From the NCBI RefSeq assembly GCF_030758975.1, contig NZ_CP132359.1:4525528-4589527 (forward strand): DNA of 64,000 nucleotides, in the 5' to 3' direction. How positions within the stretch are numbered: the first letter of the stretch is position 1; each line of letters starts with the position of its first letter. Below are positions 17,642 through 33,053 of the stretch, one piece after another. The notes beneath the pieces are model-generated. The model saw only the letters and a program-made list of their open reading frames with translations, was not told where the DNA came from and did not search any database. The stretch is from Bosea beijingensis. Its GTDB lineage: Bacteria; Pseudomonadota; Alphaproteobacteria; Rhizobiales; Beijerinckiaceae. A program made the translations under genes and the position numbers.

Positions 17642-18829
17642 TCAGCGGTAGGGATCGGCCGCGTCGCGCAGGCCGTCGCCGAGGAAGTTGAAGGCGAGGA
17701 TGATCACGATCACGGGGACGACCGGATAGAGCAGCCAGGGATAGAGCGCCACCACATTGATGTTCTGGGCTTCGTTGAGCATCACGCCCCAGCTCGTGAT
17801 CGGTGGCCGCAAGCCCAAGCCGAGGAAGGACAGCGCCGTCTCGCCCAGGATGGTCTTGGGGATGGTGATCGTGGCGGAGGCGATGAGGTGGCTCATGAAG
17901 CCGGGCACGAGATGCAGTGCGATGATGCGGCGCGGCTTCGCTCCCATGAGCTGGGCGGCGACGACGTAATCCTCCTCGCGCAGCGAGAGCAGCTTCGAGC
18001 GCACGGAGCGGGCAAGGCCGGTCCAGTCCATCAGGCCGAGGATCACGGTGATGCCGAAATAGACCAGCAGCGGGCTCCAGGTCGGCGGCAGGATCGAGGC
18101 CAGCGCCAGCCAGAGCGGGATATGCGGCAACGACTGCACGATCTCGATGATGCGCTGGATGAAGAGATCGACGCGGCCGCCATAATAGCCGGCGATGCCG
18201 CCGATGATGACGCCGAGCACGAAGGAGACGGAGACGCCGAGCAGGCCGATCGAGAGCGAGATGCGCCCGCCATAGAGGATACGCGAGAGCATGTCGCGGC
18301 CGAGCCGGTCGGAGCCGAGCAGGTAAAGCGTGCCGCCCTCGGGTGCGCAGACGAGATGCGTGTTGCCGGGGATCAGGCCCCAGAAATTATAGTCGTCGCC
18401 CTTGCAGAAAAAGCGCAGCTTCTGCGGGCGGGTCGTGTCGACCTCGTATTCGCGCTTCAGGTTCTCCATGTTGAGGCGCAGCGTGTACGGGTAGACGAAC
18501 GGCCCGACGAAATTGCCTTCGTGGAAGAGATTGATGCTCTGGGCCGGCGCCCGGATGAAATCGGTATTGCGCGTCGTGTAGTGATAGGGCGCGAGGAATT
18601 CGGCAAAGGCCGCCATCGCGTAGATGGCGACGATCACGAAGGCGGAGATGACCGCGAGCTTGTGCTTGCGGAACTTCCACCACATCAACTGCCATTGCGA
18701 GGCGAGGTAGACCCGCTCCTGCTCCGGCGTCATCGCCTCGGTGGCATAGGGCTCGAACGGCGCCGTCGAGACCTCGTGGGGCAGGGCTGCGCCGTCCGGT
18801 GGCAGATGGTTGAGCGTCGTCGCCTTCAC
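17642..18829 (-). CDS. Peptide-type ABC transporter permease (OppC/YejE-like)
   Basis: The 395-residue protein has an N-terminal cytosolic extension before the first helix (HKLAVISAFVIVAIYAMAAF). A large periplasmic segment follows, then the DppC-type permease core with five helices. The EAA motif region is LGAKPRRIIALHLVPG. The long insert between the first helix and the core is typical of YejE-like permeases for larger peptides. It overlaps the upstream permease by four bases and is the last transporter gene before the glycosyltransferases. Confidence 0.93.
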   Translation of the reverse strand: MKATTLNHLPPDGAALPHEVSTAPFEPYATEAMTPEQERVYLASQWQLMWWKFRKHKLAVISAFVIVAIYAMAAFAEFLAPYHYTTRNTDFIRAPAQSINLFHEGNFVGPFVYPYTLRLNMENLKREYEVDTTRPQKLRFFCKGDDYNFWGLIPGNTHLVCAPEGGTLYLLGSDRLGRDMLSRILYGGRISLSIGLLGVSVSFVLGVIIGGIAGYYGGRVDLFIQRIIEIVQSLPHIPLWLALASILPPTWSPLLVYFGITVILGLMDWTGLARSVRSKLLSLREEDYVVAAQLMGAKPRRIIALHLVPGFMSHLIASATITIPKTILGETALSFLGLGLRPPITSWGVMLNEAQNINVVALYPWLLYPVVPVIVIILAFNFLGDGLRDAADPYR

Positions 18830-19827
18830 TTGGTCGCCGCTCCCTGGAGACGGATGCGGGGATCCAGGATGGCGAGCGCAATGTCCGATATCAGCACGCC
18901 GATCACGGTCAGGAAGGAGAGGAACATCAGGAAGGAGCCGGCAAGATACATGTCCTGGCTCTGCAGGGCGCGGATCAGCAGCGGGCCGGTGGTCTGCAGG
19001 GAGAGCACGATGGCGACGACCTCTGCGCCCGAGACGATGGAGGGCAGGATGTCGCCGATATCCGAGATGAAGAAGTTGAGCGACATGCGCAGCGGATACT
19101 TGCGCAGGGCCTTGCCTGGCGGCAGCCCCTTGGCGCGGGCGGTGACGTAGTACTGCTTCTGCAATTCGTCGAGGAGGTTGGCTCGCAGCGCCCGGATCAT
19201 GCCGGCGGTACCGCCGGCGCCGATGATGATGACGGGAATCCAGAGATGCTCGAGCACCGACTTGAGCTTGGCCCAGCTCATCGGCTGGTTGAGATAGGCG
19301 GGGTCGACGAGTCCGCCGATCGAGGTGCCGAACCAGATATTGGCGAAATACATGAAGACCAGCGCCAGCAGGAAATGCGGCACGGCAAGCCCGACGAGGC
19401 CGAGGAAGGTCAGGCCGTAATCGCCCCAGCTATACTGGTGCGTGGCCGAGTAGATGCCGATCGGGAAGGCGACGACCCAGGTGAAGATGATGGTGGCGAA
19501 GGAGACCATCATCGTCAGGATCAGGCGGTCGCCGACGATCTCGCGCACCGGGCGCTGGTACTCGAAGGAATAGCCCATGTCGCCCTGGAGCAGGCCGGCG
19601 ACCCAGCGGACATAGCGTTCCACCGGCGGCTTGTCGAAGCCGTATTCCTTCTTCAGGAACTCGATGCGGCTCATGTCCGCCTTCTCGCCCTGGGCCTGCA
19701 TCTCGGCGGCGAGCGTCTCGAAATAATCGCCTTCGGGCAGGTTGATCACGGTGAAGATCAGCGCGCTGGTGACGATCAGCGTCGGGATCATGATCAGGAT
19801 GCGCTTGAGGATGTAGCGGATCAGCAC
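18826..19827 (-). CDS. Peptide-type ABC transporter permease (OppB/YejB-like)
   Basis: The 333-residue protein starts MLIRYILKRILIMIPTLIVTS, the standard OppB N terminus. A long loop includes LKKEYGFDKPPVERYVRW, and then the BPD permease core with the EAA-type loop (TARAKGLPPGKALRKYPLR). It forms the membrane channel with the OppC-like partner. It lies 3 bases after the binding-protein gene and overlaps the next permease, so the subunits are translationally coupled. Confidence 0.94.
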   Translation of the reverse strand: MLIRYILKRILIMIPTLIVTSALIFTVINLPEGDYFETLAAEMQAQGEKADMSRIEFLKKEYGFDKPPVERYVRWVAGLLQGDMGYSFEYQRPVREIVGDRLILTMMVSFATIIFTWVVAFPIGIYSATHQYSWGDYGLTFLGLVGLAVPHFLLALVFMYFANIWFGTSIGGLVDPAYLNQPMSWAKLKSVLEHLWIPVIIIGAGGTAGMIRALRANLLDELQKQYYVTARAKGLPPGKALRKYPLRMSLNFFISDIGDILPSIVSGAEVVAIVLSLQTTGPLLIRALQSQDMYLAGSFLMFLSFLTVIGVLISDIALAILDPRIRLQGAATK

Positions 19828-19830
19828 GCG

Positions 19831-21786
19831 TCAGGCTTTCGTTTCTGGCCTGTCGAACCAGAAGGTGTCAGGCATGTAGCGGCCGATGAAGGCGCCGGGC
19901 TCGAAGCTGTAGAGGCCCTTCTCGGGCACGTTGCGAAGGTCGTTCGAGACGACGATCGGCTGCAAGGTGCTGTTGATCACGCCGATGGTGAAGAGCTGCT
20001 CGGCATTGATCGCCAGCATCTTGTGCCAGATGGCGCGGCGCTGGTCGCGGGTCGAGCTCACGCGCCATTCCTCGTAGAGCCGCACGAGCTCGTTGACCTC
20101 GGCCAAAGCGGGCCGTTCGCCCTCGCGGCCGCCGCTCTCGATGAACTGGCCCCAGCGCGGCCACTGGAACTGGGCCGAGGAGGTCGGCGCCAGCGCGTCC
20201 GGTTCCATGTCGGAGGTGACGAGCGCATTGTCCATGCCCGCCCAGGCCGACATCACGGTCTGGCCGGCGAGGATGCGGCGGCGGAAGACGTCGCGCTGGG
20301 TCGAGCGCGGATAGATCTTGATGCCGACATCGATGAAATCCTGCTTCAGCAGGTCGAGGATGTCGGTCTCCTCGGTGCTCTCGCCGGCGGTCTCGATGGT
20401 GAATTCGAGCCGGCGTCCGTCCGGGAAAAGGCGGATGCCGTCATCATCGCGCTTGGTCAGGCCGATCTCGTCGAGCAGCCGGTTCGCCAGCGCCGGGTCG
20501 TGCTGGGTCCAGAGCTCCGCCAGCCTTGCATCGTAGAGAGGGCTTTCAGGGAGGGCGGTGTTGCCGCTCTCGCGGGCCAGCCCGAAAAAGATGACCTTGT
20601 TGACGTCCTTGCGGCTGATCGCGACCGAGATCGCCTGGCGGTAGCGGATATCGCGGTTGAGGTCGCGCCAGACCGGGTCGATCGCGTTCAGGTTGGGGAG
20701 CAGGGCGAAATAGGCACCCTCGGCCCGCTTCCACAGCTTGACGTCGAAATTCATCCGCTTCGAGGCTTCCTTCAGGAAGGTGTAGTTGTCGAAGCGGATG
20801 TAGCGGGCCTGGAGATCGGCCTCGCCGGCCGCGGTCTTGGCCGGGACGAGCGCGCTGGTGCCGATCGTTATCGTCACCTGGTCGGCATAGGGCAATTGCC
20901 GGCCGTTCTCGTCGACCCGGTGGAAATAGGGGTTGCGCTCGAAGACGAACTGTTCGGCCGGGAGCGGCGTGGTGCTGCGCCAGGGTTCCAGCGTCGGCAG
21001 CTTCGGATTCTCCGGCCGGTACATGCGCGACAGCCGCTCGTGCAGCGCCCCCCAGTCCCGCACCCTGTGTTCCTTCACGCGCTGGGCCAGCTCGTGCTTG
21101 GGGGCGTGCTTCTCGTGGAACTGCTTGAGATAGCCCGAGGGCATGAAGAGATAGGTCGGCTGGGCGCCCGCCAGCGCCGGCAGGAAGACCGGGTTCGGGA
21201 CCCTCCAGCTATAGCGGATCTCCCGCTCGCTCAGGATTTCGAAGACGGGCGGCTCGCCGGCCGAGAGCAGGGCCTGCGGAGGGCCGCCCGGCGAGAGCCG
21301 CTTGTTGTTGGCGATATCCTCCCACCAGTAGCGGAAATCTTCCGAGGTGAAGGGCGATCCATCAGACCAGCGATGGCCCTCACGCAGCTTGAGCGTGAAG
21401 ATGCGGCCTTCCTCGACGTCGCAGCTCTCGAGGATATCGGGCACGAGCTCCAGGTTGTCGTCATAGACCATCAGGCGCGTGTAGCCGTAGAGCGTCATCA
21501 TGCGGATGTCGCGCTGGTCGCCCATGAGCAGCCGGATATTGCCGCCATGGCGGCCGGGCTGCCGGCCGCGCTGCGCGAGATCGATGATGCGCGGATTGGC
21601 GGGCAGGCGCGCCGCGGCCTGCGGCAGGGTGCCGGCTGCGACACGCTCCGCGAAGAACGGGCTGTCGATCACCGGGCCGGAGAAGGGCGCGGCACGCGAC
21701 GGGCGCGGCAGGCTCGCTCCGGCCAGGGCGGCGGTGCCGAGCAGCAGGGCGGTGCGGCGGGTCGGATGGCGGCGGCGCTGCGTCAT
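19831..21786 (-). CDS. Extracellular solute-binding protein of the peptide/YejA class
   Basis: The 651-residue protein has a signal with twin arginines ([17 protein letters not shown]), suggesting Tat export or a long Sec signal. The SBP_bac_5 fold follows: [57 protein letters not shown] contains the family signature, and DTFWF ends the protein. It captures the imported ligand in the periplasm. The large size fits the YejA/microcin-C-type or oligosaccharide-peptide group more than simple dipeptide binders. The start overlaps the ATPase stop by four bases. Confidence 0.9.
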
Positions 21787-23675
21787 GGCACCAGCTCCCG
21801 GATATCGGCATTGCGCCGCGCCAGCACGTAATGGCCGTCGCCGAGTGGCAGATGCGCCAGTGCGTCCTCGTCCGCTCCGGCCTTGAACGCCTTGTCCCAG
21901 TGGCTGTCGTCGGAGGCCCCGCCGGGCGCCGCCAGCTTGAAGTCGAGTCTGCGGTCGAGATCCGCGAAGGGTACCGAGCGCAGCAATGCCTTGGTGTAGG
22001 GGTGGGTCGGACGGGTGAAGAGGGCGTGGCGCGGCGCCAGTTCGACGATCCTGCCATTGGCCATCACCGCGATCCGGTCCGCCATGTAGTTCACCACGGC
22101 GAGATTGTGCGAGATGAAGAGGAAGGTCAGGCCGCGCTCGGCCTGCAGGTCCTTGAGCAGGTTGAGGATCTGGGCCTGAACGGAGACGTCGAGCGCCGAG
22201 ACGGGCTCGTCGCAGATGATCAGTTCCGGATCGAGCGCGAGCGCACGGGCGATGCCGATCCGCTGGCGCTGTCCGCCCGAGAAGGAATGCGGATAGCGGT
22301 TGAGGAAGCGGGTATCGAGCCCGACATCCTGCATCAGATTGCGCACCCGCTCGTCCTGTTCTGCCGCATCGCCCCGGTCATGAATGACCAACGGCTCGCG
22401 CAGGATGTTCATCACGGTCATGCGTGGCGACAGCGACGAGACCGGGTCCTGGAAGATCATCTGGACGCGCGGGCGGAACCTGCGGAGATCCTCGCCGTCG
22501 AGCCCGAGCACGTCGACCCGCTGGCGCCCGTCGTCGAAGACGATCTCGCCGGAATCGGGCGTGACAGCGCGCATGATGATCTTGCTGACGGTGGTCTTGC
22601 CGCAGCCGCTTTCGCCGACGAGGCCAAGGCATTCGCCGCGCCTGATATCGAAAGAGACATCATCGACGGCCTTGACGCTGGTCTGGCTGCCTTTGCCGAA
22701 GAATCCGCGCGACCCGGTGACATAGGTCTTGTGCAGGCCGCGGACGCTGAGCAGCGGGGCTGCGTCCGCAGCGGGCTTCGGCGGGGGCGCGGCGACAACC
22801 GGGCGCGGGCGCGCCTCTCTGAGCGCGACCAGCCGCTCGCCATCCTGCATGTCGAAATGCGGGGAGGCGTCGAGCAGGGCCTTGAGATAGGGATGGCGCG
22901 GGCGCCGGAAGATGTCCTCGACCGGGCCGCGCTCCATGATTTCGCCGTGGAAGATCACGACGACCTCGTCGGCCATGTTGGCGACGACGCCGAGATCATG
23001 GGTGATGAGCAGGATCGCCATGCCCATCTCGGCCTGGAGATCGCGCATCAGGTCGAGCACCTGGGCCTGAATGGTGACGTCGAGCGCGGTGGTCGGCTCG
23101 TCGGCGATCAGCAGGGCCGGCTGGCAGATCAGCGCCATCGCGAGCATGGCACGCTGGCGCAGGCCGCCGGAGAGCTCGAAGGAATAGAGTCCGAAGGCGC
23201 GCTTCGGGTCCTTAAAGCCGACGCGCCTCAGCATCGCCTCGATCAATTCGCGGGCTTCCGCTTTCGGCATCGGCCGGTGCAGGAGCAGCGCTTCCTCGAT
23301 CTGGTCGCCGATGGTGTGGACCGGCGAGAGCGACGACATCGGCTCCTGGAAGATCATGCCGATGCGGCCGCCGCGCAGCGCCCTGATGCCTTCGCCCTCG
23401 GCGGGCAGCGTCGCGATGTCGACGACGGTCTCGGGCGCCTGCGGGTCGCGGAACAGGATCTCGCCGCCGGTGATGCCGCCGGCGCGGGGCAGGAGCCCCA
23501 TGATGGCCTGCGAGATCACCGATTTGCCGGAACCGGATTCGCCGACCAGCGCGACGGTCTTGCCGGCGGGAACGCGCAGGCTGACGCCCTTCACGACGTC
23601 ACGGGCGAGGCCGTGGATCGTGAAGCCGATACGCAGGTCGTTGATGCGCAGGATATCCATGGTCTGCAGCGGCAC
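21783..23675 (-). CDS. Double-domain ABC transporter ATPase (OppD-OppF fusion, YejF-like)
   Basis: The 630-residue protein has two complete nucleotide-binding domains. The first has Walker A GESGSGKS, signature [15 protein letters not shown] and Walker [13 protein letters not shown]. The second has Walker A GESGCGKT, signature [15 protein letters not shown] and Walker [13 protein letters not shown]. Each ends in an oligopeptide-transporter C-terminal motif ([16 protein letters not shown]). Both sites look catalytically intact. It powers the adjacent permease pair. It begins 12 bases after the stop of the lyase-like gene. Confidence 0.95.
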
Positions 23676-24912: not shown

Positions 24913-27639
24913 TTGGAGTCCAATCTCTTCCGTTACATCTGGCAGAAGAGCCGGGCAGAGCAGGTCGTCGTCCTGCTGATCATCCTTGTCTCGATTCCCT
25001 TCAACTGGGCCTCGTTCGACGTGCCCAAGCGCATCGTCAACGATGCGATCCAGGGCGGCGCCTTCAAGGACGGCAGGACCACCGCCACGCTGATGGACTT
25101 CACCCTGCACCTGCCGTCATGGCTGGGCGGGGCCAGCTACAAGATTTCAGACGGCATCCAGGTCGGCCAATACGGGCTGCTGATCGGCCTGAGCAGCTAT
25201 TTCCTGGTGCTGGTCCTGATCAATGGCGGTTTCAAATACGTCATCAACGTGCGCAAGGGCATCCTTGGCGAGCGGATGCTCAGGCGGATGCGCTACGACC
25301 TGTTCAGCCAATTGATGCGCTTCCGGCCGGAGGAGATCCGATCGGTCAAGCCGGCCGAGGTCGCCAGCATGATCAAGGACGAGGTCGAGCCGATCGGCGG
25401 CTTCGTCGGCGATGCCTTCATCCAGCCGGTCTTCCTGCTGAGCCAGGCGCTGACGGCGCTCGTCTTCATCATGGCGCAGAGCTTCTGGCTGGGCTCGATC
25501 GCGCTGCTGATCGTGCTGGCGCAGGCGATCATCATCCCGATCCTGCGGCGCGAGCAGCTCCGGCTCGGCCGTGAGCGCCAGATCGCCTCGCGCCAGCTCG
25601 CGGGCCGGATCGGCGAGATCGTCGATGCCGGGCCGATGATCCAGGGCCATGGCGCGACGGCCTATGTGCAGTCCGACATCGCCGGTCGGCTCGGGCGGCT
25701 CTTCGACATCCGCTACGCGCTCTACAAGCGCAAATTCGCGGTCAAATTCCTGAACAACCTGCTGGCCCAGATCACGCCGTTCTTCTTCTACGCCATCGGC
25801 GGCTTCTTCGCCCTGCAGGGGCGGCTCGATATCGGCCAGCTCGTTGCGGTGATCGCCGCCTATCGCGACCTGCCGCCGCCGATCAAGGAACTGATCGACT
25901 GGGACCAGCAGCGCAACGACGTCACGATCAAGTACGACCAGGTGATCCAGCAGTTCAACAGCGACGAGACGCTGGTCCTCGAGGAGGAGAACGGCGTCTC
26001 GGTCCTGCCGGCCAAGGGCGAGGTCCGGCTCGAATCCGTGCAGATGCTGGACAATCGCGGCCAGCCGCTGCTGACGCCGCTCTCGTTCAGCCTGCAACGA
26101 CCCGGCATGGTCGCGGTGGTCGGTCCGCAAGGCGGCGGCAAGGACGTGCTCGGCCGCATCCTCGGCCGGCAGGCGACGAGCTATACCGGGCGCGTGCTGA
26201 TCGATGGCGAGCCGCTGGCGGGTATGTCGGTGGAGCGGGCAAGCCATCTCATCGGCTATTCCGGCGACGAGCCCGAGATCATCGCCGGCTCGATGCGCGA
26301 CAACATCCTGCTGCCGCTGCGGCGCCGGCGCCCCGACCTGAAGACGGGCGGCACGGTCTCGCAGCCGGAGCATCGCCGCTTCGTCGAGGCGATCCGCTCG
26401 GGCAATTCACCCTTTCCGTTCGAGGCGGACTGGACCGACTATGAAGGGGTCGGCGTGGCCGATGCGGCAGAGCTCGCGGGGCGGGTCCATGAGTTGCTCG
26501 ACGTCTTCGGCTGCACGCAGGAAGTCTACGAGCTCGGTCTCGGCGGCAAGGTGATACGGCCCGTCAGCGAGCAGGCGATCGAGCGCATCATCACGGCGCG
26601 CCGCGTGGTCGCCGCCGAGCTCGCGCGGATTCAGCAGAGCGACCTGATCGAGCCTTTCGTGCTCGACCGCTACAACCGCAATGCGCCGATCATCGAGAAC
26701 CTGATCTTCGGCACGCGGACGACGACGCGCTTCGACAGCGCGACCCTGCTGTTCGAGCCCTATGCCCAGTCGATCCTCAAGGCGGAGTCGCTGGTCGAAC
26801 CCTTGGCCGAGATGGGCGGGCGCATCGTCGCGACGGTCGTCGAAATCTTCGCGGGACTGCCGCAGGGCCACGCGCTGTTCGAGCGCTATTCCTTCGGCGC
26901 CAATTTCGAGTTCGAGCGCCTGAACGAGCTGGCCGATCTGCTGGGCAAGCACGACATGCGCAACCCGCTCGACCAGGAGACCGAGCGCGATCTCGTGGCG
27001 CTGGCACTCGGCTATATCGAGCCCAAGCACAGGCTGAACCTGATCGACGCCCGGCTGGAACGGCGCATCCTCCGGGCGCGCGAGAGCTTCCGCAAGCATC
27101 TGCCGGCCGATGCGGCCGACGATGTCGATTTCTACGATCCCGACAAGGTGATGGTCGGCGCCAGCGTGCGCGACAACCTGATGTTCGGGCGCATCGGCTA
27201 CGGCGTGCCCGATGCCGCCCGCAAGGTCGGCGAGATCGTGCTGCAGGCGCTCTCCCGTTCCGGCTTGGGCGATGCGCTGTACCGGCTTGGGCTCGATACC
27301 GAGAGCGGCATCCGCGGGCGCTTCCTGCCGGCCCGGCTGCGGCAGGCCGTGCCGCTGGTGCAGGCGCTGGTCAAGGCACCGCAGATCGCGGTGCTCGATA
27401 TCTCGGCCCTGCTCGCGATTTCCGACGAGCCGGAGGAGATCGTGGCCCGGCTGCACGGCTATTGCGCGGGCATGACGCTGTTTCTTCTGGTCGGAGATGC
27501 TAATCTTGCGGGAGAGGTCCCGCTGCGCGTGGTGTTCCACGGAGCGACGGGAACGGTCGAGGCGAACGGCGCGCCCGAGGCGGCCAACGACCGGGCGTCG
27601 CACTTCGAGACCACAGGGCGAATGGAGGCGCGGTCATGA
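24913..27639 (+). CDS. ABC-type membrane protein with degenerate, insertion-split nucleotide-binding domain
   Basis: This is a large protein of ~908 residues. About six hydrophobic segments fill the first ~330 residues in an ABC-exporter-like pattern (IALLIVLAQAIIIPILRREQL, FFFYAIGGFFALQG). A nucleotide-binding region follows. Its Walker A is GPQGGGKD at 404-411, with Asp in place of the Ser/Thr that binds Mg. Only about 390 residues later come an eroded signature (LPARLRQAV) and a Walker B without the catalytic Glu (IAVLDIS). SMRDNILLP and SVRDNLMFG occur far apart, so the domain is split by an insertion of a few hundred residues. It probably cannot hydrolyse ATP normally. The start is uncertain: I favour the TTG at 24913, and the frame is open to 24640. 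It overlaps the next gene by four bases. Confidence 0.8.
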   Translation: MESNLFRYIWQKSRAEQVVVLLIILVSIPFNWASFDVPKRIVNDAIQGGAFKDGRTTATLMDFTLHLPSWLGGASYKISDGIQVGQYGLLIGLSSYFLVLVLINGGFKYVINVRKGILGERMLRRMRYDLFSQLMRFRPEEIRSVKPAEVASMIKDEVEPIGGFVGDAFIQPVFLLSQALTALVFIMAQSFWLGSIALLIVLAQAIIIPILRREQLRLGRERQIASRQLAGRIGEIVDAGPMIQGHGATAYVQSDIAGRLGRLFDIRYALYKRKFAVKFLNNLLAQITPFFFYAIGGFFALQGRLDIGQLVAVIAAYRDLPPPIKELIDWDQQRNDVTIKYDQVIQQFNSDETLVLEEENGVSVLPAKGEVRLESVQMLDNRGQPLLTPLSFSLQRPGMVAVVGPQGGGKDVLGRILGRQATSYTGRVLIDGEPLAGMSVERASHLIGYSGDEPEIIAGSMRDNILLPLRRRRPDLKTGGTVSQPEHRRFVEAIRSGNSPFPFEADWTDYEGVGVADAAELAGRVHELLDVFGCTQEVYELGLGGKVIRPVSEQAIERIITARRVVAAELARIQQSDLIEPFVLDRYNRNAPIIENLIFGTRTTTRFDSATLLFEPYAQSILKAESLVEPLAEMGGRIVATVVEIFAGLPQGHALFERYSFGANFEFERLNELADLLGKHDMRNPLDQETERDLVALALGYIEPKHRLNLIDARLERRILRARESFRKHLPADAADDVDFYDPDKVMVGASVRDNLMFGRIGYGVPDAARKVGEIVLQALSRSGLGDALYRLGLDTESGIRGRFLPARLRQAVPLVQALVKAPQIAVLDISALLAISDEPEEIVARLHGYCAGMTLFLLVGDANLAGEVPLRVVFHGATGTVEANGAPEAANDRASHFETTGRMEARS

Positions 27640-28085
27640 GTCTGGAAACCGATATCGGCTGCCTGCGCTGCATGCCGCTGTTTCAGGACATGCCGGCATC
27701 GCGGCTGAAGCTCGTCGCGCTGATGGGCGAGCGGCTGCAATTCGAGCCCGGGGCCGTCCTGATCAGCCCGCAGGAGAAGCTCGCTGGCGTCTATGTCATC
27801 ATGGAAGGCGAGGTCGAGATATCGCAGCCCGGCGAGGGCGGCGAGGAGCGGCGATTTGTGAAGGATACCGGCAGCATAACCGGCGACGTTTCGCTGCTCA
27901 GCGGCAAGCCTTTCATCATCACTGTCAGTGCGAAGTCGCGCGTTTTGGCCCTGCGGATTCCCAAAGACCTGTTCTTCGAACTGCTTCAGACGGTGCCGGA
28001 GTTCAGCCTTGCTGTCTGCCGCGATCTGGCCGACCGGGTGCATCGGCTCGCGGCCGTTCTGCTGCGAGAGCACGAAACCATTTGA
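27636..28085 (+). CDS. Stand-alone cyclic-nucleotide-binding-fold protein
   Basis: The 149-residue protein has a CRP-type beta-roll (GVYVIMEGEVEISQPG near residue 51) and a C-terminal helix pair, but no DNA-binding domain. The phosphate-binding cassette is at about 82-98 (TGDVSLLSGKPFIITVSA). The usual Glu is Asp and the usual phosphate-binding Arg is replaced by a hydrophobic residue, so canonical cAMP binding is doubtful. Its ATG overlaps the stop of the ABC-type gene, and the cyclase gene starts 16 bases later. It may be a regulatory subunit of the ABC-like protein or a partner of the cyclase. Confidence 0.85.
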   Translation: MSLETDIGCLRCMPLFQDMPASRLKLVALMGERLQFEPGAVLISPQEKLAGVYVIMEGEVEISQPGEGGEERRFVKDTGSITGDVSLLSGKPFIITVSAKSRVLALRIPKDLFFELLQTVPEFSLAVCRDLADRVHRLAAVLLREHETI

Positions 28086-28101
28086 CGGGGTCGATCAGCG
28101 C

Positions 28102-29910
28102 ATGAACCGGCCGCAAGCCGCAGGCACGAACCGCACCGGGATGCCTCGCGGCGGCATGGGCGCGAGCATGGACCAGGTCTCGTCCTGGAGCCGCGACATC
28201 CGGTTCGTCTCCGGGCTGATCCTGCTGACCTTCGCCACGAGCCATTTTCTCAACCACGCCGTGGGCATCCTCGGCGTCGATGCGATGGAGAAAGTGCAGA
28301 ACTGGCGTTATGGCGTCTGGCATTCCTGGATCGGAACGGTCCTGCTCTATGGCGCGCTGGTCGTACACCCGGTCTTCGCGCTGCTGCGCGTGGTGCAGCG
28401 GCGCACCTTCAAGATGCCGCTGCGCGAGATGCTGCAGATCGCGCTCGGCCTCGCCATCCCGCTGCTGCTGGTCGACCACATCATCAGCACGCGGATCATG
28501 GGCATCTATTTCGGTGTCGACGAGAGCTACCGTTCCGTGCTGCGCCGGCTCTGGCCGGGGCTGGCGCTGACGCAGTCGCTGCTGCTGCTGCTGGTCTGGA
28601 CGCATGGCATCATCGGCATCCATTTCATGCTGCGCGCCCGCGACAGCTATCGCCACTGGCGCGACCCGTTCCTGCTGGCGGCGATCCTGATCCCGCTGCT
28701 CGCCATCATCGGCTTCTCCGTGGGGGCACGGGAGGCCGAGCAACTGGCGATGCCGGCCGAACTGGTCAGCGATGCGCAGGCGGCGATGTTCGCCCGGGAC
28801 GTGATGTGGGGTAAAGGCGCCTTCTACGGGCTCGTCGCCTCGTTCCTGCTGTTCATCGGCGCCCGGGAGATCAGGGTCCGGACGACCCGTCAGATCACGG
28901 TGCGCTTCGTCGGTCATGGTACGCGCCGGGTGGCGCCGGGGCCGACCGTGCTCGAGATGTTCCGGCGCTTCGGCATTCCCCATGCGGCGCTCTGCGGCGG
29001 GCGGGCGCGCTGCGCCACCTGCCGCGTGCTGGTGATGGACGGCAACGACAACCTGCCGAAGCCTGGCCCGAACGAGGCCAAGCTGCTGCGGCGGATCTCG
29101 GCGCCCGAAGGCGTCCGGCTCGCCTGCCAGATCCGGCCGCGCGAAGACCTGCAGGTGCAGATCCTGCTGGCCTCGCGGCTCAATGCCGGCGCGGGGCGCG
29201 CCCTGGATCTGGACGATGCCGCCGGCAAGCGGGGGCTGACCGTGGTGGTGGCCGATCTCAGGGCGTTCTCCGCGCTCTCCGAGCGGCAATTGCCGCGCGA
29301 ATTGATCGGCCTGCTCAACCGCTTCTTCGACGAGATGGGGCAGGCGATCACCGCGCATGAAGGGCGGATCGATGCCTTCTACGGCGATGGCTTCATGGCC
29401 GTGTTCGGCCTGGAGGGCCCGCCGTCGAAGGGGGCGCAGGCGGCGATCGCGGCGGCCGGCGATATCGTGCGCGCGCTCGATGCGCTCAACCGCGAATATG
29501 GCGCGGCGCTGCCGCTGCCGCTGCGGATCGGCATCGGCATCCATACCGGCGACGCCATCACCGGATCGGTCGAGAACGACAATCTCGGCCGGCGCGAGAT
29601 CACGGTCGGCGAGACGGTGATGGTCGCGAGCCAGCTCGAATCTGCGACGCGGCGCGTGCTTGCCGATGTCGTGGTGTCCGAGGACACGATCCGGGCGAGC
29701 GGGCGCAGCTATGCCGGCACCACGACGTTGAAGATCGCGATCAAGGGGCGCGAGAAGCCGTTGACCGCCTATGGCTTCGCCAGCGCGCCGGAAATCGCCC
29801 GCCGCAAGCGCGAGGATGTGGCGGTGCCGGTGCCAGAGGTCGCCGGCGGCGAGGCGACTGCGTCGGCAGAAGTGGTGCAGGAGCAGGGCGAGACGGGCGA
29901 AAAGGGCTGA
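28102..29910 (+). CDS. cyaC: CyaC-like membrane adenylate cyclase with diheme anchor and [2Fe-2S] domain
   Basis: This 602-residue protein has three parts. First, a six-helix membrane anchor (~33-255) has histidines suited to heme b (H48, H52, H74, H89, H126, H168, H174), like the succinate-dehydrogenase-type anchor reported for Sinorhizobium CyaC. Second, a ferredoxin domain has cysteines at 298, 304, 307 and 342 (C-x5-C-x2-C spacing). Third, a class III cyclase domain spans ~378-550. Both metal aspartates are present (D385 in VADLRAF, D429 in YGDGF). The usual substrate Lys is Ala425, and the usual Asn and Arg of the VNLAAR motif read Met507 and Gln511. It probably senses quinone or redox state; cyclase activity needs proof. 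The ATG at 28102 fits the anchor start. Confidence 0.85.
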   Translation: MNRPQAAGTNRTGMPRGGMGASMDQVSSWSRDIRFVSGLILLTFATSHFLNHAVGILGVDAMEKVQNWRYGVWHSWIGTVLLYGALVVHPVFALLRVVQRRTFKMPLREMLQIALGLAIPLLLVDHIISTRIMGIYFGVDESYRSVLRRLWPGLALTQSLLLLLVWTHGIIGIHFMLRARDSYRHWRDPFLLAAILIPLLAIIGFSVGAREAEQLAMPAELVSDAQAAMFARDVMWGKGAFYGLVASFLLFIGAREIRVRTTRQITVRFVGHGTRRVAPGPTVLEMFRRFGIPHAALCGGRARCATCRVLVMDGNDNLPKPGPNEAKLLRRISAPEGVRLACQIRPREDLQVQILLASRLNAGAGRALDLDDAAGKRGLTVVVADLRAFSALSERQLPRELIGLLNRFFDEMGQAITAHEGRIDAFYGDGFMAVFGLEGPPSKGAQAAIAAAGDIVRALDALNREYGAALPLPLRIGIGIHTGDAITGSVENDNLGRREITVGETVMVASQLESATRRVLADVVVSEDTIRASGRSYAGTTTLKIAIKGREKPLTAYGFASAPEIARRKREDVAVPVPEVAGGEATASAEVVQEQGETGEKG

Positions 29911-29986: not shown

Positions 29987-30649
29987 ATGACGCCCGAACC
30001 GCCTCAAGAGGCCTTCCACGACCTGCTGCGCGGCATGGCGGCGCTCTCGGGCAACCGCATCGTCGCCGATATCGCGCGGCTCTACGGCAAGGGCGCGCCG
30101 CCGGACCTCTCGATCGCCTGCAACCACAAGCAGATCGCCTCCAAGCAATGGCTGGTCGAGGCGCTGGCCGAGACGTACGCGAAGCCCGCGGGGCCGGTCT
30201 GGGTGCTCGGTGCCTGGTATGGCGTGCTCGGCGCGCTGCTGCTGGATGATGACAGGCTCGTGATCCCCGGCATCGTCAGCCTCGATATCGACCCAACTTG
30301 CGAGCCGGTCGCGGAGATACTCAATCACCGCCATGTCGCGGCCGGCCGGTTCCGCGCGGTGACGGCCGACATGATGGCGGTCGATTTCGCGGCGCAGTCG
30401 CCGGCACCGGGGCTCGTCATCAACACGAGCTGCGAGCATCTCGACGACGTGCCGGGCTGGCTCGCGACCCTGCCGCGGGGTCTGCCGCTGGTGTTGCAGT
30501 CCAACGATTATGTCCGCGAGCCGGATCACCGGAGCTGCGTGCCCTCGCTCGACGCTTTCCGCGAACAGGCAGGGCTGTCGGAGGTCTGGTTTGCAGGTGC
30601 CCGGCCGACGAAGAATTATACGCGCTTCATGCTGATCGGCCGGCGATGA
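29987..30649 (+). CDS. Class I SAM-dependent methyltransferase-like protein
   Basis: The 220-residue protein has a Rossmann-type motif I equivalent (VWVLGAWYGVLGALL near residue 67) and an acidic residue after beta-2 (VSLDIDPTCEPVA), as in SAM binding. LVINTSCEHLDDVPGWLATLP occupies the motif IV region. The glycine-rich loop is atypical, so family membership is moderate. It begins 76 bases after the cyclase and its stop overlaps the next glycosyltransferase start, so it belongs with the glycan genes. A sugar or lipid-linked glycan is a plausible substrate. Confidence 0.65.
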   Translation: MTPEPPQEAFHDLLRGMAALSGNRIVADIARLYGKGAPPDLSIACNHKQIASKQWLVEALAETYAKPAGPVWVLGAWYGVLGALLLDDDRLVIPGIVSLDIDPTCEPVAEILNHRHVAAGRFRAVTADMMAVDFAAQSPAPGLVINTSCEHLDDVPGWLATLPRGLPLVLQSNDYVREPDHRSCVPSLDAFREQAGLSEVWFAGARPTKNYTRFMLIGRR

Positions 30650-31896
30650 CGGCGGCGACGGCGCCGCGCATCGCGGTGGCGATGAAAGGCTATCCGCGCC
30701 TGTCGGAGACCTTCATCGCGCAGGAACTGCTTGGCTTGCAGCAGCGTGGCCTGCCTTTCGAGATCTGGTCGCTGCGCCATCCGACCGATGCGGCCAGGCA
30801 TCTGATGCACCATCAGATCACGGCGCCGGTGCGTTACCTGCCGGAATACCTCCACGACGAGCCGTTGCGCGTGGCGCGCGGCCTGTTCGCTGCCCTGCTG
30901 CGGCCCGGCCTGCTACGGCTGCTGCCGGTCTTCCTGCGCGACCTCTTCCGCGATCGCACGCGCAATCGTTGGCGCCGCTTCGGGCAGGCCTGCGTGATGG
31001 CGCGCGAATTGCCCGATGAGATCCGGCACCTGCATGTGCATTACCTGCACACACCGGCCTCCGTGATCCGCTATGCCGCCCTGCTCGGCGGCCTGACATG
31101 GTCGTTCTCGGCCCATGCCAAGGATATCTGGACGACGCAGGACTGGGAAAAGCGCGAGAAGATCGCCTCGGCGGCCTGGGGCGTGACCTGCACGCGCGAC
31201 GGGCATCGCGAGCTGGAACGCCTCTCCGACCGGCCGGACAAGGTCGCATTGCTCTATCATGGGCTCGATCTCGCGCGCTTTCCGGCACCGGGACCACGGT
31301 CGCAGCGGGACGGCTCCGACGCGAACGATCCCGTGCGTTTCGTCACCATTGGGCGCGCCGTTGCGAAGAAGGGCTTCGACGATCTGCTGGAAGCCTTGGC
31401 CAAGCTGCCTTGCACGCTCAACTGGCACCTCACGCATGTCGGCGGCGGCGAGAAGCTGAAGGCCTTGCAGGCGCAGGCGCAGGCGCTCGGCCTCGATGAC
31501 AAGATCACCTGGGCCGGGCCGAAGGCGCAGGACGAGGTCATCGCCACGCTGCGGGCGGCCGACCTCTTCGTGCTGCCCTCGAAGGAGGCCGGCGACGGCG
31601 ACCGCGATGGCCTGCCCAATGTGGTGATGGAGGCGGCGAGCCAGGGCCTGCCGATCGTCGCGACCGATTTCGCAGGAATACCGGAATTCGTGCGCGATGG
31701 CGTCGAGGGCTCGCTGGTGCCGCCGGGCGATGTGGCGGCACTCGCAGCGGCGCTGGATGGTGTGGCGCGGGTGCCCGATAGGCGTGCGGCGCTGGGCGAG
31801 GCGGCCTACGCCCGGCTGACGGACGCCTTCTCGGCGCAGGCCGGGCTCGACCGGGTCGCGGCGATGCTGCGCCATTCGGCCGGCGAGGCGGCATGA
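30646..31896 (+). CDS. GT4-family glycosyltransferase (WcaL/colanic-acid-type)
   Basis: The 416-residue GT-B transferase has an N terminus VAMKGYPRLSETFIAQEL that is characteristic of exopolysaccharide glycosyltransferases of the WcaL/EpsE kind. HLHVHYLHTPASVIRYAALL and WSFSAHAKDIW follow. The C-terminal donor site has FVTIGRAVAKKGFDDLLEAL, ADLFVLPSKEAGDGDRDGLPNVVMEAASQGLP and VATDFAGIPEFV. Start and stop overlap both neighbours by four bases (ATGA), so the methyltransferase and both transferases are translated as a unit. Confidence 0.9.
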   Translation: MTAATAPRIAVAMKGYPRLSETFIAQELLGLQQRGLPFEIWSLRHPTDAARHLMHHQITAPVRYLPEYLHDEPLRVARGLFAALLRPGLLRLLPVFLRDLFRDRTRNRWRRFGQACVMARELPDEIRHLHVHYLHTPASVIRYAALLGGLTWSFSAHAKDIWTTQDWEKREKIASAAWGVTCTRDGHRELERLSDRPDKVALLYHGLDLARFPAPGPRSQRDGSDANDPVRFVTIGRAVAKKGFDDLLEALAKLPCTLNWHLTHVGGGEKLKALQAQAQALGLDDKITWAGPKAQDEVIATLRAADLFVLPSKEAGDGDRDGLPNVVMEAASQGLPIVATDFAGIPEFVRDGVEGSLVPPGDVAALAAALDGVARVPDRRAALGEAAYARLTDAFSAQAGLDRVAAMLRHSAGEAA

Positions 31897-33053
31897 GCGC
31901 TTCCGTTCTGATCGCGGTGACGCATCTGCTCGGCAGCGGCCATCTGGTCCGCGCCGCCAATCTGGCGCGGGCTTTGGCGCAAAACGGGTTTGCGGTGACG
32001 CTCGCCAGCGGCGGCATGCCGTTGCGTGCGATGGAGGGCGAACCCTTCGCCTTCGTGCAATTGCCGCCGATCAAGACCGAAGGCACCGATTTCCGTACGC
32101 TGCTCGACGAAGCCGGCCAAGCGATCGATCCGCAGCGCAACGCGGCCCGTATCGCGATGCTGGAAGAGCTGGCTGCGCGGCTGCGCCCCGATGCCGTCAT
32201 CGTCGAGCATTTCCCGTTCGGACGGCGGCAACTGGCTGCGGAGTTCCTCGCGCTGATCGCGGCAACGAAAGCGGCGAGGCCAGAGGCGCTCGTGCTCTCC
32301 TCGGTGCGCGATGTGCTGGTGACGCCGCGACCGGACCGGATCGCCGAGGCCGAGGAGCGGATCGCTGGGCTGTTCGATGCGATCCTGGTCCATGGCGATG
32401 CCGGATTCCTCCCGCTCGACCGGTCGTGGCCTGTGGGTAAGGGGTTGGCAGCGAAGCTGCGCTGTACCGGCTATCTCGCTGATGACCGGCCCGTTGGTCC
32501 TGCGCAGGAGAATGGCGAGATCATCGTCTCAGGCGGTGGTTCGGCCACGGCCTTGCCGCTCTTTGCCTGTGCCGTCGCGGCGGCGCGGCTCGACCGATCC
32601 GGGCGTCGCTGGCGGCTGCTCGCTGGGCGCGGCATGGCAGATGCCGATCTGGCGCTGCTAATGGCCGAAGCCCCCGACAAGGTCGTGATCGAGCGGGCGC
32701 GGCCGGATTTTCCCGCGCTGCTGGCCGGTTGCGCGGTCTCGATCAGCCAGGCGGGCTACAACACGGTTCTCGATCTCGTCGCGGCCGGGCGCCCGGCGAT
32801 CGTCGTGCCCTTCGATGCCGGCAACGAGACCGAGCAGACGGTCCGAGCCGAGGCGATGGAGCGGGCCGGACTGGCGCGCTGCTTTCGCCTGTCGGGCGAT
32901 TTCGTCGCGGACACCGTGGCGCTGGCGGACGCCGTCGGGGAAGCGTTCGGTTCCAAACCGCCCACCCTGCCGATCGATCTCGAGGGCGCCGCCCGCTCGG
33001 CCGCGATCGTGACGGAGCTTCTCGCCGAAGTCGCTATCCGCGCCGGACACTGA
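31893..33053 (+). CDS. MurG-like (GT28-type) glycosyltransferase
   Basis: The 386-residue GT-B protein has the N-terminal glycine-rich segment VTHLLGSGHLVRAANLARALAQNGF. The C-terminal donor region is IIVSGGGSATALPLFACAV, and SISQAGYNTVLDLVAAGRPAIVVPFDAGNETEQTVRAE carries the MurG/GT28 hallmark. It resembles the gene at 14253-15533 in overall plan but is clearly diverged. It ends the methyltransferase-transferase-transferase unit, 149 bases before cobS. Confidence 0.85.
   Translation: MSASVLIAVTHLLGSGHLVRAANLARALAQNGFAVTLASGGMPLRAMEGEPFAFVQLPPIKTEGTDFRTLLDEAGQAIDPQRNAARIAMLEELAARLRPDAVIVEHFPFGRRQLAAEFLALIAATKAARPEALVLSSVRDVLVTPRPDRIAEAEERIAGLFDAILVHGDAGFLPLDRSWPVGKGLAAKLRCTGYLADDRPVGPAQENGEIIVSGGGSATALPLFACAVAAARLDRSGRRWRLLAGRGMADADLALLMAEAPDKVVIERARPDFPALLAGCAVSISQAGYNTVLDLVAAGRPAIVVPFDAGNETEQTVRAEAMERAGLARCFRLSGDFVADTVALADAVGEAFGSKPPTLPIDLEGAARSAAIVTELLAEVAIRAGH

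What the first reader, a model, noticed from the sequence alone, without database searches (positions are those of the whole stretch)
24913..29910. Three linked genes whose canonical nucleotide-handling residues are all eroded: ABC, cNMP-binding fold, cyclase
Seen: an ABC-like protein with Walker A GPQGGGKD, no LSGGQ and no catalytic Glu; a cNMP-fold protein without the phosphate-binding Arg; and a class III cyclase with Ala, Met and Gln where Lys, Asn and Arg are usual. The genes are joined by an ATGA overlap and a 16-base gap. Known: these residues matter for ATP hydrolysis, cNMP binding and cyclisation in their families. Inference: the unit may be a redox-sensing membrane complex in which nucleotides act in a changed way, or as purely structural ligands. 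The same drift in three neighbours is hard to explain as random decay, because the folds and the heme/FeS half are preserved.
Basis: partly seen in the sequence, partly recalled or inferred. Interest (0 to 1): 0.75.

Follow-up and report, generated by a model that had tools for sequence, protein, structure and literature searches.

The report
Redox sensor with dead cAMP machinery
A soil bacterium keeps three neighbouring genes that look like a cAMP-making redox sensor, a cAMP receptor and a transporter, yet all three have lost residues that normally handle nucleotides while staying under selection, which suggests that a chemical-messenger circuit may have become a direct-contact one.

Summary
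The window is Bosea-like. Gene 3 is a relative of the quinone-sensing adenylate cyclase CyaC: haem histidines, FeS cysteines and both metal Asps are kept, but catalytic Lys/Thr/Asn/Arg read Ala/Ile/Met/Gln. Gene 2 is a cNMP-binding fold with Phe for the phosphate-binding Arg. Gene 1 is an ABC-exporter fold with a degenerate ATPase site and a roughly 270-residue insertion repeating the Q-loop/helical segment. 'The same drift in three neighbours' needs correcting. The ABC site is degenerate across a large alphaproteobacterial family. The cyclase was lost once, in a sub-clade. The receptor Arg was lost only in Bosea (kept at 0 of 39 loci; 136 of 140 relatives keep it). At 9 relatives' loci cyclase and receptor are both canonical, and a second Bosea copy keeps the Arg in 18 of 18. 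No sign of decay: the dead cyclase domain is usually the most constrained of its protein's three domains, and ABC and CyaC-like gene occur in the same 59 of 67 Bosea genomes. Two glycosyltransferases lie nearby at 99 of 146 loci. Best reading (inferred): a redox-gated membrane complex for a surface glycan, signalling by protein contact instead of cAMP.

The parts
24913..27639 (+). ABC-exporter-fold membrane protein, 908 aa, TTG start
26122..26145 (+). degenerate Walker A GPQGGGKD (Asp in place of Ser/Thr)
26230..26643 (+). repeat segment 1: Q-loop-like strand, GSMRDNI helix, helical domain (residues 440-577)
   Evidence: hhalign vs segment 3 E 2.8e-8; AF2 secondary structure
26632..27138 (+). 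repeat segment 2: NAPIIENLIFG (residues 574-742)
   Evidence: hhalign vs segment 3 E 8.3e-14; best of 16 controls 0.006
27109..27417 (+). segment 3: GASVRDNLMFGR, eroded signature LPARL, Walker B IAVLD then Ile for the catalytic Glu (residues 733-835)
27636..28085 (+). cNMP-binding-fold protein, 149 aa, no DNA-binding domain matched, no phosphate-binding Arg (Phe93, nt 27912-27914; Asp84 for Glu)
   Evidence: Pfam PF00027; cassette columns
28102..29910 (+). pseudo-CyaC, 602 aa: membrane domain with His48/89/126/168, 2Fe-2S domain with Cys298/304/307/342, class III cyclase homology domain
29215..29787 (+). cyclase homology domain: Asp385 and Asp429 kept; Ala425, Ile500, Met507, Gln511 at the catalytic positions
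29987..30649 (+). conserved protein, no Pfam or NCBIfam match; a relative beside the S. meliloti cassette is annotated class I SAM-dependent methyltransferase
   Evidence: similarity to the S. meliloti protein judged by eye
30646..31896 (+). glycosyltransferase 1 (GT4-like), ATGA overlap with the gene before
   Evidence: Pfam PF00534; conserved neighbour
31893..33053 (+). glycosyltransferase 2 (GT28/MurG-like), ATGA overlap
   Evidence: Pfam PF04101; conserved neighbour

Best explanation
The three proteins form a membrane complex. A CyaC-type sensor (two haem b in the membrane, one 2Fe-2S cluster) reads the redox state of the quinone pool. Its cyclase domain is catalytically dead but still folds and dimerises, and passes the conformational change by contact to the cNMP-fold protein, which no longer binds cAMP and has an aromatic side chain at the lost Arg position. 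That protein acts on the ABC-exporter-fold protein, whose ATP cycle is abolished or strongly altered, and which probably takes part in making or exporting a surface glycan or glycolipid built by the two glycosyltransferases encoded just downstream. Shown here by sequence: the identities, the lost residues, conservation under selection, the order of the losses, linkage and co-occurrence. Inferred: complex formation, loss of catalysis and of cAMP binding, the glycan role, signalling by contact.
For: Four His kept in 56 of 56 CyaC-type rows and four Cys in 55 of 56, the other truncated; 120 of 120 database relatives keep all eight. Catalytic K/T/N/R all absent in the 37 complete Bosea rows; 2 more are truncated. 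CNB Arg in 0 of 39 Bosea loci vs 136 of 140 others with a CNB; F or Y in 106 of 110 database relatives. Tree of 30 of the 56 rows: catalytic loss is one clade (100/98), Arg loss one change nested in it. dN/dS of the cyclase domain 0.03-0.05 in the three closest pairs, below the membrane domain in 10 of 10 pairs and below the FeS domain in 8 of 10. ABC and CyaC-like gene found in the same 59 of 67 Bosea genomes and missing from the same 8. CNB next to ABC in 165 of 189 loci and fused to it in 14 more. Both glycosyltransferases near in 99 of 146 loci, at least one in 106. The window genome shows no other class III cyclase domain and no class I cyclase. In S. meliloti CyaC physically binds a CRP-like cAMP receptor; the K410A/T484A form interacted in two-hybrid tests, and so did the N491A/R495A form, data not shown by the authors (PMC10463352, passages).
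Against: No interaction, activity or phenotype data exist for any member here. Both metal-binding Asps are kept, so NTP-Mg binding may persist. In S. meliloti the CyaC-Clr contact in vitro needed ATP and was lost or weakened in the active-site mutant. The CNB gene is the least constrained of the three in 6 of 10 pairs, dN/dS up to 0.55. The glycosyltransferase link is by neighbourhood; 40 of 146 loci lack both. A cyclase of any kind is found near the cassette at only 52 of 150 non-Bosea loci.
Confidence: 0.45

Rival explanations
1. The complex still uses nucleotides, but as ligands: the cyclase domain binds NTP-Mg through its two Asps as an energy sensor (or turns over very slowly), and the CNB pocket binds a different small molecule.
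For: D385 and D429 kept in 120 of 120 relatives; the cassette Gly-Asp-Val is kept in 39 of 39 Bosea loci; ATP was needed for the CyaC-Clr contact in S. meliloti (PMC10463352).
Against: Lys, Thr, Asn and Arg are all gone; the K410A/T484A and N491A/R495A forms of S. meliloti CyaC were silent in the two-hybrid strain, which the authors ascribe probably to loss of activity (PMC10463352). An aromatic residue replaces the CNB Arg in 106 of 110.
Confidence: 0.3
2. The ABC-CNB part is a glycan-synthesis scaffold that neither transports nor signals, and pseudo-CyaC is a structural or electron-carrying remnant.
For: ABC active site degenerate family-wide: both Walker A Lys and Ser/Thr in 2 of 142 and no SGG signature in 142 non-Bosea rows; repeated NBD segment; glycosyltransferases in 106 of 146 loci.
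Against: Outside Bosea the CNB Arg is kept in 136 of 140; of 42 non-Bosea cyclases read, 11 are fully canonical and 19 differ only by Lys for Arg, so nucleotide signalling looks like the older state; the membrane redox half is invariant.
Confidence: 0.15
3. The pseudo-cyclase forms a heterodimer with another cyclase chain that supplies the missing residues.
For: Class III sites form at dimer interfaces (general knowledge); many Bosea genomes carry further PF00211 domains.
Against: The window genome shows a single PF00211 match and a search with this protein adds only ferredoxin-domain hits. By my count, in 20 of the 59 genomes with the CyaC-like gene the only PF00211 match lies in that gene.
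Confidence: 0.04
4. Decay: the genes are on their way out.
For: Many catalytic residues lost; one MAG locus each with a split ABC (L040) and a split cyclase (L019); one stop each in G807 (ABC) and in the divergent G819 cyclase.
Against: Open frames in nearly all loci, low dN/dS lowest in the dead domain, ABC and CyaC-like gene in the same 59 of 67 genomes.
Confidence: 0.03

Closest known systems
CyaC of Sinorhizobium meliloti (SMc01818), redox-regulated class III adenylate cyclase
   Same: Haem membrane domain, FeS cluster (both from PMC10463352) and class III cyclase domain; catalytic column spacing K-T-N-R is 74/7/4 in CyaC (K410, T484, N491, R495 in PMC10463352) and 75/7/4 here. Its sequence was not aligned here
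   Different: All four non-metal catalytic residues replaced; neighbours are ABC and CNB, not TetR/LysR regulators (PMC10463352 passages)
ABC + Crp/Fnr-like CNB cassette on S. meliloti pSymB (L195; possibly SMb20813, called an msbA homologue in PMC10945364, one passage read; the tag was not matched to the locus)
   Same: Same ABC with insertion (40% identity), CNB next to it, glycosyltransferase and methyltransferase-like neighbours
   Different: CNB keeps the Arg (VGEIAILCNTPRTATV); no cyclase annotated in the 18.6-kb stretch
ABC exporters (MsbA, BmrA, TM287/288)
   Same: Exporter transmembrane domain and complete NBD fold
   Different: Walker A, signature and catalytic Glu degenerate; Q-loop/helical segment repeated in an insertion
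Cyclic-nucleotide-binding homology domains that no longer bind cNMP, as in KCNH channels (recalled)
   Same: CNB fold kept, ligand-binding residues lost
   Different: Stand-alone 149-aa protein beside an ABC gene and a dead cyclase

Membership tests
CyaC-type redox adenylate cyclase | four histidines in the membrane domain (haem ligands; the tetra-His signature is recalled) | tested here: met
   56 of 56 rows and 120 of 120 database relatives; haem binding itself not testable
CyaC-type redox adenylate cyclase | 2Fe-2S domain with four Cys | tested here: met
   Fer2 match; 120 of 120 relatives; 55 of 56 locus rows, one truncated before the fourth Cys
CyaC-type redox adenylate cyclase | class III cyclase fold with both metal Asps | tested here: met
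CyaC-type redox adenylate cyclase | catalytic Lys, Thr/Asp, Asn, Arg | tested here: not met
   Ala, Ile, Met, Gln
CyaC-type redox adenylate cyclase | cAMP formation | not testable with these tools
   needs assay
cNMP-binding protein | CNB fold | tested here: met
   PF00027 E 2.7e-13
cNMP-binding protein | phosphate-binding cassette Glu and Arg | tested here: not met
   Asp and Phe
ABC exporter | exporter transmembrane domain plus complete NBD fold | tested here: met
ABC exporter | Walker A Lys with Ser/Thr, LSGGQ signature, catalytic Glu | tested here: not met
   GKD (Lys kept in the window), LPARL, Ile; Walker B Asp is kept
ABC exporter | ATP-driven export | not testable with these tools
   needs assay; substrate unknown

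The most novel reading that the evidence does not exclude
A second-messenger pathway that has lost its messenger: sensor, receptor and effector of a cAMP circuit persist as interacting folds under selection, and the redox signal passes by protein contact through a dead cyclase and a dead cAMP receptor to a degenerate ABC protein with a repeated Q-loop/helical segment, with intermediate stages of the conversion alive in sister lineages.
Probability: 0.35. Interest if true: 0.87.

Novelty: new variant of a known kind. Interest (0 to 1): 0.68.

Why it matters
It gives a natural series, within one gene cassette, of a nucleotide-signalling circuit at successive stages: canonical cyclase and receptor, degenerate cyclase with canonical receptor, then both degenerate. 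That makes testable whether enzyme-based signalling can turn into contact-based signalling. It also exposes a widespread alphaproteobacterial ABC-CNB cassette, often with glycosyltransferases (found in 131 of 385 sampled genomes of the class), including one in S. meliloti. The literature searches aimed at it (open-licence papers only) showed no described function.

Tried and rejected
Decay was tested by dN/dS, frames and genus-wide presence and rejected. Canonical residues hidden elsewhere were looked for by alignment to solved cyclases and by structure comparison and not found. A heterodimer partner cyclase is disfavoured; of other cyclase classes only class I was searched. Segments 1 and 2 of the ABC insertion match each other over only 22 columns, so a threefold repeat rests on each matching segment 3. 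The hhalign E-values are pairwise and uncalibrated; the best of 16 control comparisons gave 0.006. The sigma-70 scan found 0 sites where 0.6 are expected by chance, so it says nothing. Literature searches for the cluster or for dead cyclases gave no paper or hits of little or no bearing; one search gave the CyaC paper, two papers that name pSymB gene tags. The 2019 CyaC biochemistry paper is known to me only by recall and as reference 5 of PMC10463352.

Six loci (L071, L093, L094, L097, L133, L134) match the insertion profile but score low over the rest and had no adjacent CNB found; they were left out of the residue counts. Two non-Bosea rows and one Bosea row (L040) could not be scored for all ABC motifs. 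L030 and L055 are the same locus, so 39 Bosea loci are 38 distinct. Walker B columns were read after removing alignment gaps and may be off by one in some distant rows. Neighbour families are single-linkage clusters of raw open frames. The first, narrower cyclase search found cyclases downstream at 42 of 150 non-Bosea loci, a wider profile at 52, any strand. In one search the first Asp column of many Bosea rows was cut off by my excerpt; one search replaces it. 19 Bosea genomes show a second ABC match; 18 were fetched, the fragmentary one of G807 was not.

Full report
What is there. Searches confirm the three genes, the ATGA overlap and the 16-base gap. Pfam gives ABC_membrane and ABC_tran for gene 1, cNMP_binding for gene 2, Fer2 and Guanylate_cyc for gene 3. 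The closest named relatives are Bosea, and the window lies in a genome of one 5.56 Mb contig. The unit continues on the same strand with a conserved gene without Pfam match (29987-30649; a relative is annotated methyltransferase) and two glycosyltransferases (30646-31896 and 31893-33053).

Gene 3 is a CyaC relative. S. meliloti CyaC has a six-helix membrane domain with two haem b, redox-sensitive through quinone (PMC10463352; abstract, Background section and passages read). Here the four histidines, four FeS cysteines and both metal Asps are present in 120 of 120 database relatives. In 56 locus rows the histidines are complete in all and the cysteines in 55, one row being truncated. The catalytic columns read Asp-Ala-Asp-Ile-Met-Gln instead of Asp-Lys-Asp-Thr-Asn-Arg. 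In S. meliloti the double mutants K410A/T484A and N491A/R495A were silent in the two-hybrid strain, which the authors ascribe probably to loss of activity; the match of these positions to the columns here rests on spacing, not on an alignment to that protein.

Relatives with canonical residues. Of 17 non-Bosea CyaC-type rows, 9 are fully canonical and 8 are degenerate; all 17 have a neighbouring CNB protein that keeps the Arg. In Bosea the Arg is gone in 39 of 39 loci (38 distinct) and in 110 of 110 database relatives. Across non-Bosea loci with a CNB, 136 of 140 keep it. A tree of 30 of the 56 CyaC-type rows (13 of 39 Bosea, 17 of 17 others) makes the degenerate rows one clade (100/98) and needs one change for the Arg, nested inside it. 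The root is a midpoint, so the direction of change rests on the canonical state being ancestral. On that reading the cyclase site was lost first and the receptor Arg later.

Paralogue control. Nineteen Bosea genomes show a second ABC match; 18 were fetched, and all 18 are fusions of ABC and CNB that keep the Arg. Cyclase domains were found near 12 of the 18 fusions; all keep Asn and Arg, though many have another residue for the Lys. So the Arg loss is specific to this copy.

Selection. Pairwise NG86 dN/dS against ten Bosea relatives is 0.10-0.41 for the ABC, 0.08-0.55 for the CNB and 0.10-0.44 for the cyclase gene. The dead cyclase domain is lower than the membrane domain in 10 of 10 pairs and lower than the FeS domain in 8 of 10. 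The CNB is the least constrained gene in 6 of 10 pairs and the most in the three closest. Genomes are GC-rich and the method is simple, so absolute values are rough. In the genus, the ABC insertion and a CyaC-like gene are each found in 59 of 67 genomes and missing from the same 8. One of the 59, G819, has only a divergent cyclase match (39% identity, a stop inside); catalytic residues were not read in each genome.

Spread and neighbours. A profile of the insertion alone finds the family in 122 of 397 genomes of the order and 131 of 385 of the class. In 189 loci the CNB is adjacent in 165 and fused in 14; a CyaC-type cyclase follows in 56 (39 of them Bosea) and another class III cyclase in 25. 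A wider profile finds a cyclase somewhere in the stretch at 52 of 150 non-Bosea loci, so most relatives have no cyclase found near. Of 42 non-Bosea cyclases read, 11 are fully canonical and 19 differ only by Lys for Arg. In 146 loci (3 of the 39 Bosea kept), 99 have both glycosyltransferases and 41 a metallo-beta-lactamase-fold gene, typically just after the CNB. One such protein matches RNase Z models best and a cyclic-nucleotide phosphodiesterase model more weakly, all far below cut-off. S. meliloti pSymB carries ABC and CNB with glycosyltransferase and methyltransferase-like neighbours, and its CNB keeps the Arg. The near-universal CNB Arg outside Bosea is what makes the Bosea state unusual.

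Interpretation. The evidence shows a conserved unit whose sensing half is intact and whose nucleotide half is not. The working model is contact signalling inside a complex. The precedent is that S. meliloti CyaC binds its CRP-like receptor directly, and that catalytically silent forms still interacted in two-hybrid tests (for N491A/R495A, data not shown by the authors). Against this, the CyaC-Clr contact in vitro depended on ATP, and Bosea keeps both metal Asps, so a nucleotide-binding but non-cyclising domain remains the main rival. The glycan role is inferred from neighbourhood only. I file gene 3 as a pseudo-CyaC, not an adenylate cyclase; gene 2 as a CNB-fold protein, not a cAMP receptor; gene 1 as an ABC-exporter-fold protein, not an ATPase.

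Noticed in passing
window 24913; loci L002-L049: The ABC gene uses TTG at the aligned first residue in 39 of 48 loci (ATG 6, GTG 3), a conserved rare start codon if the start is right.
   Followed up: partly
L061, L062, L079, L108, L109, L117, L125, L181-L185, L192, L193 and L197-L214: ABC and CNB fused in one chain of about 1,000-1,100 residues, in distant lineages and as a second copy in 18 fetched Bosea genomes, at 12 of these 18 near other cyclase domains.
   Followed up: partly
19 loci such as L100, L113, L069: A cyclase next to the cassette reads Asp-Lys-Asp-Thr-Asn-Lys: the transition-state Arg column is Lys.
   Followed up: no
41 loci, for example L121:6366-7217: A metallo-beta-lactamase-fold gene starting RFWGVRGS lies just after the CNB; it could be a local cyclic-nucleotide phosphodiesterase, but RNase Z models score higher.
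   Followed up: partly
window 17642-23675, minus strand: Open frames that read like an oligopeptide-type ABC importer operon (two permeases, binding protein, double ATPase; judged by eye) lie beside the cassette; an ATPase of this kind clusters at 26 of 146 loci.
   Followed up: no
P0096: A family member is labelled Leptospira interrogans by its source; given its otherwise alphaproteobacterial relatives this looks like contamination or mislabelling.
   Followed up: no
L019, L040, genomes G807 and G819: A few draft or MAG copies have split or interrupted ABC or cyclase frames; not mended.
   Followed up: no
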